Source: Methylocapsa palsarum (lineage in GTDB: Bacteria > Pseudomonadota > Alphaproteobacteria > Rhizobiales > Beijerinckiaceae). From it: a stretch of DNA of 64,000 nucleotides. The notes beneath the pieces are model-generated. The model was not told the origin of the DNA, did not search any database, and was given only the letters and a program-made list of their open reading frames with translations. The stretch spans positions 1 through 64,000 of the forward strand of contig NZ_FOSN01000016.1 of NCBI RefSeq assembly GCF_900114285.1. The letters run 5' to 3'. Shown here in pieces: positions 7,643 through 14,231 of the stretch. The position numbers and the translations under genes are program-made. Position 1 is the first letter of the stretch. Every line of letters starts with the position of its first letter.

Positions 7643-7729
7643 TCGAATATTCTCAAGCGTCATTACTCTTCAATGGCGCTTGAGGCGACCACTGCAATCT
7701 GACAGAGAGCCTTTGCAAGAGGAGTGTGC

Positions 7730-8698
7730 GTGTCGGTCCAATTCGTCGTCCCTGGAAGCAAGTCGGTGTCGCGGCCGCCGTCAGTCGCCGCATATTTGGT
7801 AGACCGCACCTTTTTCTTCATAGCGGCCCTCGGGGCTCTGATCATTATCGCCCTCGTCGCCTATATCCTTTGGGAAATCGGCGGCCAGGCCCTTCCCGCG
7901 ATCCGCACCAGCGGCGCCAAATTCCTCATCAACACCGGCTGGGACGCGCAACGAGGCAATTTCGGCATCCTGCCGCAGATCTGGGGCACGCTCTACAGCT
8001 CGCTTCTGGCGCTGGCGATCGGCGGCTTCATTGGGATCACCATCGCGATCTTCCTCACCCAGGATTTTCTGCCGCCGAGGATCGCGGTCATTTTCCGCAC
8101 ACTGATCGAAATGCTGGCCGCGATCCCGAGCGTCGTCTTCGGCCTCTGGGGCATTTTCGTCGTCATTCCCTTCGTGCGGCCCGGCGCCAACTGGCTTTTT
8201 GAACACGCGGGCTTCATCCCCTTCTTCGGTTCCTCGCTGAGCGGTCCGGGTCTTCTGCCCGCGGTGATCGTGTTGTCGATCATGATCCTGCCGACGGTCG
8301 CCGCGATCTCGCAAGACGCGATCGGGCTCGTCCCCTACAAGATCAAGGAAGCCGCCTACGGCATGGGCGCGACCCGGTGGGAAGCGATCCTGAAAGTCAT
8401 CGTGCCGACCGCGTCGGGCGGCATTTTCAGCGCGCTCGTGCTGGGTTTTGGCCGCGCCCTCGGCGAGACCATGGCCCTCGCCATGCTGATCGGCAACTCC
8501 AACCAGATTTCCCTCTCGCTGTTCTCGCCCGCGAATACACTCGCGGCGCTGCTCGCCTCGAACTTCCCCGAAGCGGCTCAGCCCGAACGTCAGGCGCTGA
8601 TGTATGCGGCTTTGGTGCTGCTGGCGATCACGCTGGTCGTCAACGTGTTCGGAACGCTGATCCTGATCTGGACCTCTCAAAAGGTTGCGAAGGCCTGA
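7730..8698 (+). CDS. pstC: Phosphate ABC transporter permease PstC
   Basis: About 322 aa integral membrane permease forming the channel with PstA. The GTG at 7730 is chosen because AAGAGGAG sits 6 bp upstream; a GTG at 7724 is the alternative. Six or so hydrophobic segments are seen, the first at FFFIAALGALIIIALVAYIL, plus the cytoplasmic ATPase-contact loop EAAYGMGATRWEAILKVIVP and the following GRALGETMALAMLIGN. The stop overlaps the pstA start (TGATG), so the two are translationally coupled. pstS ends 87 bp upstream. Confidence 0.94.
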   Translation: MSVQFVVPGSKSVSRPPSVAAYLVDRTFFFIAALGALIIIALVAYILWEIGGQALPAIRTSGAKFLINTGWDAQRGNFGILPQIWGTLYSSLLALAIGGFIGITIAIFLTQDFLPPRIAVIFRTLIEMLAAIPSVVFGLWGIFVVIPFVRPGANWLFEHAGFIPFFGSSLSGPGLLPAVIVLSIMILPTVAAISQDAIGLVPYKIKEAAYGMGATRWEAILKVIVPTASGGIFSALVLGFGRALGETMALAMLIGNSNQISLSLFSPANTLAALLASNFPEAAQPERQALMYAALVLLAITLVVNVFGTLILIWTSQKVAKA

Positions 8699-9603
8699 TG
8701 TCGAAAGTCTCCCAATACCAAGACGGCGGGATCTCCCGCGCGAGGAGCTTCGCGCCGGACCTGCGCCACAATGCGTTCGAGGCGCGCGCGATGGCGAACG
8801 TGCTTCTGACCGCCGGCGCCTGGTTCGTCGCAGCGCTCGGCGCCGTGCCCCTCGTGTCCGTCATCTACATGCTCGTCGTCAAGGGCGGCGCGCGGCTCAA
8901 CACGGAGCTGTTCACGGAACTGCCTCCGGCGGGTTTTGAAATGGGCGGCGGCATCGGCAACGCCATTCAGGGAACGCTGGTCACGGTCGGCATCGCGTCC
9001 GCGATCAGCATACCGATCGCCCTTCTGGCCGCGATCTATCTCGCCGAATTCCGCCCCAACAGCAACATAGCCGTCGCGGCGCGGTTTCTGTCGAAAGTAC
9101 TGACCGGCTTTCCCTCGATCCTCGCCGGCGTGTTCGTCTACGCGGCCGTCGTACTTTTGATGGGGACCTATTCGGCTCTCGCCGGCGGCGTCGCCCTCGC
9201 GGTGCTCATGCTGCCGACCGTCACGCTGACGGCGGAAGGCGCCATGCGGATGGTGCCACAGCGGATGAAGGACGCGGCCATTGGCATGGGCTGCACCAAA
9301 ACTCAGGTCGTGTGGAGCGTGACTCTCCCGACGGCGCTGCCGAGCATCGTCACCGGCGTCATCCTCGCGGTCGCGCGCGTCGCCGGGGAATCCGCGCCCC
9401 TGCTGTTCACCGCCCTGTTCAGCAATTACTGGCTGCGCAGCGTCAAGGAGCCGACCGCGTCGCTCTCGATCCTGATCTACAACTTCTCGAGCATGCCCTT
9501 CGAAAACCAGATCGAACTCGCCTGGGCGGCCTCGCTGGTGCTCGTCCTGATCGTACTCACCTTCAACATTCTCAGCCGCTTTATCGGCCGCCCCCAGGTC
9601 TAG
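8698..9603 (+). CDS. pstA: Phosphate ABC transporter permease PstA
   Basis: About 301 aa, partner permease of PstC. The ATG shares its A with the pstC stop codon. Transmembrane segments include NVLLTAGAWFVAALGAVPLV and IGNAIQGTLVTVGIASAISI. The ATPase-contact loop is DAAIGMGCTKTQVVWSVTLP, followed by ARVAGESAPLLFTALF, both typical of PstA. pstB starts 9 bp after the stop with a GGAGACC ribosome site. Confidence 0.94.
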   Translation: MSKVSQYQDGGISRARSFAPDLRHNAFEARAMANVLLTAGAWFVAALGAVPLVSVIYMLVVKGGARLNTELFTELPPAGFEMGGGIGNAIQGTLVTVGIASAISIPIALLAAIYLAEFRPNSNIAVAARFLSKVLTGFPSILAGVFVYAAVVLLMGTYSALAGGVALAVLMLPTVTLTAEGAMRMVPQRMKDAAIGMGCTKTQVVWSVTLPTALPSIVTGVILAVARVAGESAPLLFTALFSNYWLRSVKEPTASLSILIYNFSSMPFENQIELAWAASLVLVLIVLTFNILSRFIGRPQV

Positions 9604-9612
9604 GAGACCCCC

Positions 9613-10431
9613 ATGTCCACCGCCGCTGTTCTCAGGCGTCCTAAAACCGGCACGTCGTCGGATATCGCGATCGACTGCAACGTCAACAAAATCTTCTACG
9701 GCAACTTTCTCGCCGTGCGCGACAGCGCCGTTCCGATCGAGAAAGGCAAGATCACCGGCTTCATCGGACCCTCGGGCTGCGGCAAGAGCACCGTTCTACG
9801 CAGCCTCAACCGCATGAACGATCTGATCCCCGGCTTCCGCCTCGAAGGCAAGGTCGATTTTCTCGGCCAGGACATCTACGCGAAGGGCATCGACCCTGTC
9901 GTCGTGCGGCGCTATATCGGCATGGTGTTCCAGCAGCCGAACCCGTTTTCGATGAGCATTTTCGACAATGTTGCGTTCGGCCTGAGGCTCAACCGGTTCA
10001 AGGGCGACGTCGAGGAAAAGGTGGAGCACGCCCTGCGTCGCGCGGCGCTGTGGGATGAAGTCAAGGACAAGCTGAAAGCCAGCGGGCTGTCGCTCTCGGG
10101 CGGCCAGCAGCAGCGCCTCTGCATCGCCCGCGCGGTGGCGACGGAGCCGACCGTTCTCTTGATGGATGAACCCTGTTCCGCGCTGGACCCGATCGCGACA
10201 CGGCGCATCGAAGAGCTCATGCTCGAACTCAAGAAGGACTACACGATCGCGCTCGTCACCCACAACATGCAGCAGGCGCGCCGCGTCGCCGACGTGACGG
10301 CGTTCTTCTCGGTCGACATCTCGAAAGGCGGCCGCACCGGATTTCTCGTCGAGATCGGCGACACCAACAACATCTTCGATGCGCCGGAAACCGAACTGAC
10401 CAAACAATATATCCGCGGCGAGTTCAGCTGA
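9613..10431 (+). CDS. pstB: Phosphate ABC transporter ATP-binding protein
   Basis: A 272-aa ATPase driving phosphate import by PstCA. Walker A is GPSGCGKST (52-60), the Q-loop VFQQPNPF (about 105-112), the signature LSGGQQQR (161-168) and Walker B LLMDEP (182-187), then the switch histidine in LVTHNMQQA. The PstB-specific start ([15 protein letters not shown]) and [17 protein letters not shown] tail are present. A second pstS-like gene follows 23 bp later; phoU and phoB are not in the window. Confidence 0.96.
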
Positions 10432-10454: not shown

Positions 10455-11510
10455 ATGTCCTTGTCTTTGAAAAAGCTGGCGGCTGTCCTGGCCGCCGGGA
10501 CTGGATTGTTTGGTCTCGTCGACGCCCCCATCGCCGCAAGCGGCGTCGAAATCCACGGGGCCGGCTCGACCTTCGCGGCGCCTCTTTACGAAAAGTGGAT
10601 GGCGGCGTTCGAGGCGGCCCAGCCCTCGATTTCGCTGCATTACGACGCCGTCGGTTCGGGCGAAGGGGTCGCGCGGTTCCGCGCCGGCGCCGCGGATTTC
10701 GGGGCCAGCGACGCGCCCTTGCCGGCCACGGACGCCTCGACCGTCGACCGGGGCGTCGTCCAGGTGCCGAGCACCGCCGGAATGATCGTGCTGGCCTATA
10801 ACCTTCCCGGCGTGCAGGGCCAGCTCAAGCTGCCGCAGGACGTCTATGTCGATATTTTCCTCGGCAAGATCAGGACCTGGGACGACCCCCGCATTCTTGA
10901 AGCCAACACGGACCTCGACCTTCCCTCCACCAACATCGCCTTGATCGGCCGGAGGGAATCCAGCGGGACGACCTACGCCCTGACCAGCCATCTCGCGGCG
11001 GTCAGTCCATCCTGGCGGGAGGAAGGCCCCGGCGTCGGTAAACTTGTTGAATGGCCCAACGTGGCCATGCTCGCGCGCGGCAACGAGGGCGTCGCCGCAA
11101 AAATCAAGCTCAGCGAAGGCTCGATCGGCTACGTGGAATACGGCTTCGCGAAAAGGCTTGGACTGCCCGCGGCGGCCCTTGAAAACAAGGACGGTCAGTA
11201 CGTCGTCCCGAGCGAGGACGCAGGCGCCGCCGCGCTCGCGGCGTCGGCCGGGCATGGGTTGGACGAACATGGGCTGGACGGACTCCCGGCGTCGTTGACA
11301 AACCCGCCCGGTCCGCACACCTATCCGATCGTGACCTACAGCTGGCTCCTTCTTCACGAACGCTATCCGGCCGCCCAGGCGCAAGCGGTCGCCTCCTTCG
11401 TCAGCTGGGCGCTCGAAGACGGCCAGCGTTAAGCGGCGGACCTTGGCTATCTCGCCCTGCCTGCCGCGGTGGCCGATTTAGGCAAGCGGGCTCTTTCCCG
11501 CGTCAAGTAA
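10455..11510 (+). pseudogene. Second PstS-like binding protein, interrupted by in-frame TAA
   Basis: The first 325 codons encode a signal peptide (MSLSLKKLAAVLAAGTGLFG) and a PstS fold with the same binding segments as the upstream pstS (GAGSTFAAPLYEKW, GSGEGVARF, DFGASDAPL, RRESSGTTYALTSHL). A TAA at 11430-11432 then falls inside the conserved C-terminus. Reading on in the same frame gives AADLGYLALPAAVADLGK and a second stop at 11508-11510, which aligns with IAESMGYIPLPASVIEK at the end of the intact pstS. The truncated protein lacks the last 25 residues plus the stopped one. It may be non-functional, a tolerated truncation, or a sequencing error. Last gene of the pst cluster. Confidence 0.8.
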
Positions 11511-11551: not shown

Positions 11552-12238
11552 GTGCATGATTTGGCGGTCCTCAACCTTTCTGCGATCGATGCCGCTCTAC
11601 ACGATCTCCAGCGCGACTTTCCCCGGATCAACAAGGAATTGTTCGACCGGCGCGACCCTCTCGACGACGAAGTCGTCGACAATATGCTGGAGGGCTACGC
11701 CGCGGTCGACCGCCTGATCCGCGACGGAACCGACATTTTCGCAATGGGCCAGCTCCATCATTGGCTGGAGCTGAACAACATCGTCCTTTGCGGACGCGAC
11801 CCCGCCGTCCGGGCGCGCCATCACCGGCTCTCGCAGGCGACAGCGTCGCGCTTTTACGAACATCCTGACGGCGGCATCCGCGAAGTCATCGACTGGTACG
11901 CCGTCAATTCCGCCAAAGGCCCCTGGCGGCGCGGCGCCGGCGTCTATATCCGCGTTCTCAGCGATCCACAATTGTTCATCGAGGGCAACCACAGAACCGG
12001 CGCGCTCATCGTATCCTACCTTCTCGCCCGCGACGGGCGGCCGCCGTTTGTCCTCACGCGACGGAACGCGCGCGAATTTTTCAACCCCTCCTCCGTGTTC
12101 AAGAAGAGCAACAAGCGCAGCGTCATGATGCGCCTCAAGATGCCCGGACTGACGAGCGCTTTCGCGGATTTTCTGAAGGCGCAATCGAACCAGGCCTTTC
12201 TCGCCGCGCCGGAACCCTCGCGGGCGCCGACGGCGTAA
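11552..12238 (+). CDS. Fic/Fido-like protein with altered catalytic motif
   Basis: Up to 228 aa. Starts are GTG at 11552, or TTG at 11561 with GGGAAGG about 8 bp upstream. Residues about 143-155 read PQLFIEGNHRTGA, which resembles the Fic motif H-P-F-x-[DE]-G-N-G-R, but Gln stands where the catalytic His should be and His replaces the second Gly. The helical segments around it (VIDWYAVNSAKGPWRR before; ALIVSYLLARDGRPPFVLT after) fit a Fido core. Fic enzymes transfer AMP or other groups to proteins; without the His this one may be inactive or do something else. The Fic assignment is inference from the motif; the gene itself looks real and precedes a hairpin terminator. Confidence 0.55.
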   Translation: MHDLAVLNLSAIDAALHDLQRDFPRINKELFDRRDPLDDEVVDNMLEGYAAVDRLIRDGTDIFAMGQLHHWLELNNIVLCGRDPAVRARHHRLSQATASRFYEHPDGGIREVIDWYAVNSAKGPWRRGAGVYIRVLSDPQLFIEGNHRTGALIVSYLLARDGRPPFVLTRRNAREFFNPSSVFKKSNKRSVMMRLKMPGLTSAFADFLKAQSNQAFLAAPEPSRAPTA

Positions 12239-12293: not shown

Positions 12294-12740
12294 TCAGTTG
12301 ATGAACTCGGTCACCTTGCGCGACCTCGCCTCGACAAGAACCGCGCGGTCGTTGACGATCGTGTAGCGGAGGTCCTGCTTTGCGCCGATGTCGGCGGGCA
12401 ACGCATAGAGTTCGACGCTGTCCGGCAGGACCGCTCCGACCGCCACCTTGTCGGCGAATTTTATCGAAGGCTTTTTTTCCCTGACGACAAACTTCTGAAT
12501 TTTGCCGCGCTGCTCGGCGGAGGGAGAGCCGGTTTCAGCGGCGGCTTTCGGCTCCGTCATTGCTTTTGCGGGTCCCGCGGCTGATCCCTTCACAGCGGCT
12601 TCAGACGGCGTAGCTGGGGAGGCGGCCGCCGCCGGAGCGGCGCCTGGCGAGGCTGCGCCGGGAAGGGGCTGAGCATGCGCCGCCAGAGGAAGCGCGACGA
12701 TGGCGAGAAGTGCGCTGGCGTAAAAAGCGTGCTTGGTCAT
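12294..12740 (-). CDS. Exported DUF1236-domain protein
   Basis: 148 aa. A clear signal peptide (MTKHAFYASALLAIVALPLA, cut after AHA) is followed by a Pro/Ala-rich linker (about 25-90), then a C-terminal DUF1236 domain: VAVGAVLPDSVELYALP and YTIVNDRAVLVEARSRKV. DUF1236 proteins are small periplasmic or outer-surface proteins common in Hyphomicrobiales; their function is unknown. Single gene, divergent from the antiporter gene across about 220 bp. Confidence 0.82.
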   Translation of the reverse strand: MTKHAFYASALLAIVALPLAAHAQPLPGAASPGAAPAAAASPATPSEAAVKGSAAGPAKAMTEPKAAAETGSPSAEQRGKIQKFVVREKKPSIKFADKVAVGAVLPDSVELYALPADIGAKQDLRYTIVNDRAVLVEARSRKVTEFIN

Positions 12741-12846
12741 GTTGTTTGTCCTTTGGCAATCAGTTGCCGGATCTAAATTCCGCCAATCCGCCTGAAGGGA
12801 TGATGAAGCCGGCGTTCATGCGCCGTTCAAGCTTTCGAGCCTCTCC

Positions 12847-12913
12847 AGCCTTCCGCCTTGCCACGCCTTCCTCCTTGCCATGCCTTCCTCCTTGCCAAGC
12901 CTTCCGCTTGCCA
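12847..12913. repeat. 17-bp tandem repeat, four units
   Basis: Four adjacent units of the type GCCTTCCTCCTTGCCA(N): AGCCTTCCGCCTTGCCA, CGCCTTCCTCCTTGCCA, TGCCTTCCTCCTTGCCA, then a 16-bp last unit with one base lost. It lies in the intergenic region between the DUF1236 gene and the antiporter gene, about 50 bp before the antiporter start. No gene is seen in 12741-12961. Confidence 0.8.
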
Positions 12914-12961
12914 AGCCGCTCCGGTTCAGGTGCTATGGGCCACGCGGAGGAGAATCGGGGC

Positions 12962-14231
12962 ATGGAGCAGGCCGGCGCCGTCAATCTCATGGTTCTTGCC
13001 GTCGCGATGGCGCTCGCCGCCGCGATCCCTACCCTCGCCCCGCGGCTTCCTTTGCCCCGCCCCGTGATCGAGATCGTGCTGGGGGCAATTGTCGGGCCGC
13101 ACATCCTCGATCTCGTCCATCCGGACCTTATCTGGGATTTCCTCGCGGATTTCGGCCTTGGAATGCTCTTTCTCATGGCCGGCTTCGAGATGGACCCCGC
13201 TTCGTTGCGCGGCGACCCGATCCGCAATGCGGCGGCAGGCTGGGCGATCTCGCTGATCCTCGCCCTTGTCGTGTCGATGATTCTCCTCGTCGGGGGCGTC
13301 GCAGAGGCGCCTTTCCTGACCGCGCTGGCGCTCTGTACGACGTCGATCGGCCTGCTCTTGCCGGTGCTGCGCGACGGCGGCCTGCTCGCGCCTCCCTATG
13401 GCCCGGCCATGCTCGCCGCCGGCGCCCTCGGCGAAGCGGCGCCGCTCTTCCTGCTCCCGCTGGCGCTCGCGCATCAGGGCGGCGCGGGCGCGCAGGCGCT
13501 GATCATGATAGGCTTCGGCGTCGCCGCAGCCGCAGCCATCGTTTTCGCCTCACATGCGAGCCGGGGCGCGTTCGCCGCGGTCATCGAACGGACCATGAGG
13601 ACGTCGGGCCAGCTTCCGATGCGCCTCGCGATCTGCCTTTTGATCCTTCTGGTCGTGCTCTCGCAGCGCTTCGAAATCGACTTCGTCCTCGGCGCCTTCG
13701 TCGCGGGCGCCGTGGTTCGCGCCGCCCTGCCACGGGATTTGCACGAGGCCATGGCCGCGCGTCTCGACGGCATCGGCTCGGCCTTTCTAGTGCCTGTCTT
13801 TTTTCTGTCTTCGGGGATGCGCCTCGACCTCGCGGCGCTCATGAACGACCACATCGCCGCCGGCATGATCGCCATCCCTGCTGCTTTACGACCGCGAATT
13901 ACTCCCCAGGCAGACCGTAGGCCTGGCGCTGCATTCGGGCACGCAGCTCTCCCTCGTCGTCGCTATCGCCGGGATCGCCGCGCGGCGCGACCTGATGCCG
14001 ACAGGCCAGGCCGCCGCGCTGGTTGGCGGCGCCGTCGTGACCGTTCTGTTATTCCCCGCGCTCGCCGCGCGGGCGCTGAGGAAGCAGGCGGGGGAGGACT
14101 CAAACCTATCCATCGCCGCCATCGCGGCACCGCCCCCGGTCCCGGAGCTATGCGCCGTGGAGACAAACATTGTCGCGGCGACGGCGGTCGCCGACGTCCG
14201 CCGCCTTCGATTTTGGGAGCGCGCCCGCTAA
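12962..14231 (+). pseudogene. CPA2-family cation/proton antiporter (KefB-like), frameshifted
   Basis: From ATG 12962 the frame encodes about 308 residues of a Na+/H+ exchanger domain: about ten hydrophobic segments, with VIEIVLGAIVGPHILDLV, FLMAGFEMDP and FVLGAFVAGAVVRAAL typical of CPA2. After MIAIP (about 13879) the frame turns to Arg/Ala-rich nonsense. The next frame continues convincingly with LLLYDRELLPRQTVGLALHS, GTQLSLVVAIAGIAA and a final membrane segment, ending at 14231. The join also seems to lack roughly 8-12 residues expected in the family, so a small deletion plus frameshift is likely. Call: broken gene, unless the assembly is wrong here. Confidence 0.75.

What the first reader, a model, noticed from the sequence alone, without database searches (positions are those of the whole stretch)
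11420..11510. In-frame TAA truncates the second pstS-like gene before a conserved tail
The protein stops at DGQR, yet the codons after the TAA, in the same frame, continue AADLGYLALPAAVADL, matching the end of the intact pstS (IAESMGYIPLPASVIEK), and end at a second stop 26 codons later. A one-base change of a sense codon to TAA explains it. This supports gene decay or an error, rather than a naturally short protein.
Basis: seen in the sequence. Interest (0 to 1): 0.55.

Follow-up and report, generated by a model that had tools for sequence, protein, structure and literature searches.

The report
Phosphate-binding gene cut by premature stop
The second of two phosphate-binding-protein genes in a bacterial phosphate-uptake operon carries a premature stop codon just before its last 25 codons, most likely a recent loss-of-function mutation in a spare copy of the gene; this is ordinary.

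Summary
In the second pstS gene of a pst operon (10455-11432), an in-frame TAA at 11430-11432 is followed by 25 in-frame codons for the usual PstS C-terminal end, then a second TAA. Of 110 related loci, 109 have a sense codon at that column and at least 25 residues from it onward; one is cut by its contig end. A naturally short protein is therefore unlikely. The nearest relatives carry the intact gene at the same operon position. The tail is not decayed: 22 of 25 residues match the nearest relative, against 200 of 290 in the body. That means a very recent nonsense mutation or a base error; without reads I cannot separate them. Loss is plausible: the genome has three other PstS genes that run to normal ends, and another genome of the genus has a differently wrecked copy at the same site. 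No TAA-reading tRNA was among the 41 detected, so readthrough is unsupported. The lost part is a confidently predicted C-terminal helix region. An ordinary young pseudogene; interest is low.

The parts
10455..11432 (+). second pstS gene (pstS2), phosphate-binding protein, 325 codons up to the premature TAA
   Evidence: ORF; TIGR00975 285.4 bits, cut-off 205; Pfam PBP_like_2 129.6 bits
11430..11432 (+). premature in-frame TAA
   Evidence: sense codon at this column in 109 of 110 related loci, the other cut by its contig end
11433..11510 (+). remnant of the C-terminal coding region: 25 codons plus the presumed ancestral stop TAA
6617..7642 (+). first pstS gene (pstS1), intact
   Evidence: TIGR00975 377.7 bits over 1-314 of 315; runs to its normal end
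7724..8698 (+). pstC-like permease gene
   Evidence: named by order and by similarity to the same gene in four relatives of the genus, 80-86% identity; no family search was run on it
8701..9603 (+). pstA-like permease gene (start codon not settled)
   Evidence: 84-90% identity in four relatives of the genus; no family search was run on it
9613..10431 (+). pstB-like ATPase gene
   Evidence: 85-88% identity in four relatives of the genus; no family search was run on it
11552..12238 (+). conserved neighbour, weakly Fic-like protein of 228 aa
   Evidence: directly behind pstS2 in 12 of 80 loci; Pfam Fic only at E 0.18

Best explanation
The second pstS gene of this pst operon suffered a recent nonsense substitution just before its last 25 codons. 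Translation should stop after residue 325. The protein would lack most of a short helix, the conserved GY-x-x-LP segment and the last helix of the periplasmic binding-protein fold, so it is probably unstable or weak (inferred). The cell tolerates this because the operon's own first pstS and two further pstS genes remain. The stop, its place and its absence from relatives are shown; the youth of the mutation is inferred from the undecayed tail; the loss of function is inferred from the fold and not tested.
For: The TAA is seen only in this gene: 109 of 110 related loci have a sense codon there and at least 25 residues from that column on (106 distinct sequences). Three orthologues of the genus and a Rhodoblastus MAG carry the gene at the same operon position, between pstB and the Fic-like gene, and run to a normal end. 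The tail is still coding-like: 22 of 25 residues identical to Methylocapsa aurea and 20 of 25 to M. acidiphila, with NG86 dN 0.131 and 0.155 against dS 1.9 and 0.80. There are three other PstS genes in the genome, each running to a normal end. A relative, G004, has a wrecked copy at the same place: the match starts at residue 197, changes frame and holds a TGA, with pstB and the Fic-like gene still there. The lost segment is predicted with pLDDT 91-95 and holds the final helix, 332-342 of 346 in the M. acidiphila protein. A neighbouring gene, a probable cation/proton antiporter, also seems broken by a frame change, which suggests that decay occurs nearby.
Against: No raw reads and no second strain of the species were available, so a wrong base is not excluded. 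The body of the gene shows no clearly faster protein change than the intact orthologues, so there is no sign of a long-standing pseudogene. Against the most distant of the four orthologues, L032, the tail has dN 0.499 over dS 0.387, and against L007 dN 0.408 to dS 1.05; intact genes compared with L032 give dN 0.35-0.48 to dS 0.74-1.30, so the L032 value could be read as relaxed constraint, but 25 codons are too few to tell. The phosphate-contact motifs lie before the stop (motif roles recalled), so some binding could survive.
Confidence: 0.75

Rival explanations
1. The TAA is a sequencing or assembly error and the gene is intact.
For: The tail is well conserved against the two nearest relatives. 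The relatives have a sense codon. The other six genes of the block from ppk to the Fic-like gene show no interruption in their own frame.
Against: A single substitution in an assembly of 78 contigs rated 100% complete is less often an error than an indel is (general knowledge). The same gene is wrecked by other lesions in G004.
Confidence: 0.15
2. The shortened protein of 325 residues is functional, a naturally short PstS of this lineage.
For: The N-terminal region, and the ligand motifs by recalled position, come before the stop (no signal-peptide test was run). No clear rise in protein change over the body.
Against: 109 of 110 related loci keep the tail. The tail includes residues invariant in 12 aligned sequences, G326 and L330 of the M. 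acidiphila protein, and a confidently predicted helix. The tail DNA still looks like coding sequence against the two nearest relatives, so the state cannot be old.
Confidence: 0.07
3. The stop is read through, so that a full-length PstS2 is still made at some level.
For: The tail is conserved in frame after the stop.
Against: None of the 41 tRNAs found has an anticodon that would read TAA (the set may be incomplete). TAA is not the codon used for selenocysteine or pyrrolysine (recalled). 109 of 110 loci have no stop there, so there is no conserved recoding.
Confidence: 0.03

Closest known systems
PstS, phosphate ABC transporter substrate-binding protein (TIGR00975; E. coli PstS, PDB 1ixh and 9k3x)
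   Same: Sequence match of the translated frame to TIGR00975 above the curated cut-off and to solved PstS chains. The intact orthologue's model matches E. coli PstS (9k3x chain E) with TM 0.81/0.87.
   Different: The window gene stops before its last 25 codons; the E. coli PstS chains align with the orthologue's end beyond that point.
Young bacterial pseudogene by nonsense substitution in a redundant paralogue
   Same: One in-frame stop, orthologues and paralogues that run on, tail not yet decayed.
   Different: Nothing notable; that the change is in the organism and not only in the assembly is unproven.

Membership tests
PstS (TIGR00975) | profile score over the curated cut-off of 205 bits | tested here: met
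   285.4 bits truncated; 305.9 bits with the stop read as unknown residue
PstS (TIGR00975) | gene next to pstC, pstA and pstB | tested here: met
   order pstS1-pstC-pstA-pstB-pstS2-Fic-like in the window; same order in L030-L034 and L116
PstS (TIGR00975) | full C-terminal end of the fold | tested here: not met
   match ends at profile position 288 of 315; 109 of 110 related loci go on
PstS (TIGR00975) | binds phosphate | not testable with these tools
   needs a binding assay
Pseudogene by nonsense mutation | stop absent from orthologues, conserved coding sequence after it | tested here: met
Pseudogene by nonsense mutation | mutation present in the organism and not only in the assembly | not testable with these tools
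   no reads or second strain held
Programmed stop-codon readthrough | stop conserved in relatives | tested here: not met
   sense codon at this column in 109 of 110 loci, the other cut by its contig end
Programmed stop-codon readthrough | a tRNA that reads the stop | tested here: inconclusive
   no such anticodon among 41 tRNAs, but the set lacks some expected tRNAs

The most novel reading that the evidence does not exclude
The TAA is read through at a low, useful level, so that the operon makes a short and a full-length PstS2, with the tail kept under selection.
Probability: 0.03. Interest if true: 0.55.

Novelty: already known. Interest (0 to 1): 0.12.

Why it matters
It matters mainly for annotation: the gene should be marked as a probable pseudogene (or the base checked), not as a short PstS. 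It also fits a small pattern: the second pstS behind pstB runs to its normal end in three other genomes of the genus, is stopped here and is wrecked in a fourth, so the gene looks dispensable.

Tried and rejected
A naturally short protein was rejected as the main reading, because 109 of 110 related loci continue.

A frame change instead of a substitution was rejected: the tail lies in the same frame and lines up without a gap with the nearest orthologues.

General damage over the operon was looked for with ORFs of three relatives: 53 matched the window and 21 were flagged. Three of these are pstS2 with the stop at 11430. One is the natural end of the Fic-like gene. By strand and frame of their coordinates the other 17 are 11 antisense ORFs and 6 on the plus strand whose flagged part lies out of frame with the gene there. 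The comparison covers only the block from ppk to the Fic-like gene, because the matches end there.

A suppressor tRNA was sought and not found. The 41 tRNAs lack some expected kinds (for example none is labelled isoleucine), so the set is incomplete.

Four literature searches (of these only the listed papers and the starts of their abstracts were seen, 10 of 1482, 6 of 6, 12 of 166 and 6 of 14; no paper was opened) showed nothing on this gene.

dN/dS values are rough because the dS of the gene body is above 1 and the tail has only 25 codons. No structure of the truncated protein was predicted, because in my judgement such predictions rarely show the effect of a truncation.

Full report
Observation. 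The ORF list and the sequence show ATG 10455, 325 codons ending EDGQR, TAA at 11430-11432, then 25 in-frame codons and TAA at 11508-11510. The residues after the stop match PstS ends far better than those after any other of the 2594 stop codons examined in the window.

Identity. The frame is PstS by TIGR00975 (285.4 bits, cut-off 205) and belongs to Pfam PBP_like_2. It is the fifth gene of the order pstS1-pstC-pstA-pstB-pstS2, followed by a weakly Fic-like gene. The same order is present in Methylocapsa aurea (L030), M. acidiphila (L031), an uncultured Rhodoblastus (L032), a Defluviicoccus MAG (L033), a proteobacterial MAG (L034) and G003 (L116) (organism names).

Relatives. I compared 110 loci with the window gene: L002-L026, L028 and L030-L113. 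L027 and L029, the broken copy of G004, were left out of this count, and so was L001, the window gene itself. In 109 of 110 the column of the stop holds a sense codon and at least 25 residues run from that column to the end; L035 ends with its contig. By the last 150 residues 106 of the 110 are distinct. They include paralogues, three of them from the window's own genome. The four nearest orthologues (L005, L006, L007, L032) hold F, L, Y and Q at that column. In a wider search 6 of 199 genomes of the family, the window's own included, had a match at E 1e-80 or better.

Age. Against L005 the tail is 22 of 25 identical and the body 200 of 290; against L006, 20 of 25 and 186 of 290; against L007, 14 of 25 and 188 of 290; against L032, 12 of 25 and 185 of 290. 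Intact pairs behave much alike: L005-L006 22 of 25 and 208 of 290; L005-L007 14 of 25 and 193 of 290; L005-L032 13 of 25 and 188 of 290. So by identity the window's tail is no more decayed than the tails of intact genes. NG86 values for the tail are dN 0.131, dS 1.9 (L005); 0.155, 0.80 (L006); 0.408, 1.05 (L007); 0.499, 0.387 (L032). The last is against strong constraint, but rests on 25 codons. The whole fits a very recent mutation or a base error. The one odd feature that I noticed in the body is a 15-base near-tandem repeat (11253-11267 and 11268-11282, 13 of 15 bases alike by eye), which adds five residues that the seven compared sequences lack (alignment).

Consequence. A model of the M. 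acidiphila protein (mean pLDDT 88.1) gives helix 320-324, a bridge at 328 and a final helix 332-342; the window gene would lose everything from the residue aligned with 321 on (position by G318 Q319). The blocks 321-330, 331-340 and 341-346 have pLDDT 91, 93 and 95. The model matches solved PstS structures (best hit 9k3x chain E, TM 0.81/0.87), and phmmer aligns this end with E. coli PstS (1ixh) up to its residue 306. Loss of this part should harm folding; that is inference.

Redundancy and repeated loss. The genome has three other PstS genes, each running to a normal end. Of the 14 other genomes of the genus held, three (G001, G002, G003) have a close pstS2 (64-67% identity) that runs to a normal end. 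G004 has only remnants behind pstB: matches to residues 197-237 and 237-350 in two frames, with a TGA inside (sequence); the last part of the second match overlaps the Fic-like gene and is probably spurious. The other ten gave only hits of 42% identity or less. So the gene seems to have been broken at least twice in the genus, by different lesions.

Readthrough. ARAGORN on loci covering all 41 tRNA hits of the genome found no anticodon that reads TAA. 109 of 110 loci have no stop there. I give readthrough 3%.

Verdict. A confirmed premature stop in a redundant phosphate-binding-protein gene, most likely a young pseudogene, with a sequencing error as the main rival. Ordinary.

Noticed in passing
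window 11552-12238 (+): A 228-aa, weakly Fic-like protein with the motif PQLFIEGNHRTGALI sits directly behind pstS2 here and in 12 of 80 related loci, among them Methylocapsa, Rhodoblastus and Defluviicoccus. Pfam Fic scores only E 0.18, and the residue where Fic proteins carry the catalytic His (recalled) is Gln in all 12 adjacent loci and here. A conserved partner of the pst operon is possible; one paper search (6 of 14 listed, none opened) showed nothing on it.
   Followed up: partly
window 12710-14090 (+): A probable cation/proton antiporter gene (named from its sequence, no family search run) seems broken: three distant relatives (35-38% identity) match its start in one frame (two up to 13849, one to 13930) and its end in another frame. 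Against one relative (L181) the window is about 35 bases shorter at the junction; the other two alignments place it less clearly.
   Followed up: partly
L114 5700-6190 (genome G004): Remnant of pstS2 between pstB and the Fic-like gene: N-terminal part missing, frame changed, a TGA inside. Apparently an independent loss of the same gene.
   Followed up: yes
window 11253-11282: A 15-base near-tandem repeat inside pstS2 adds five residues that seven compared PstS sequences lack.
   Followed up: no
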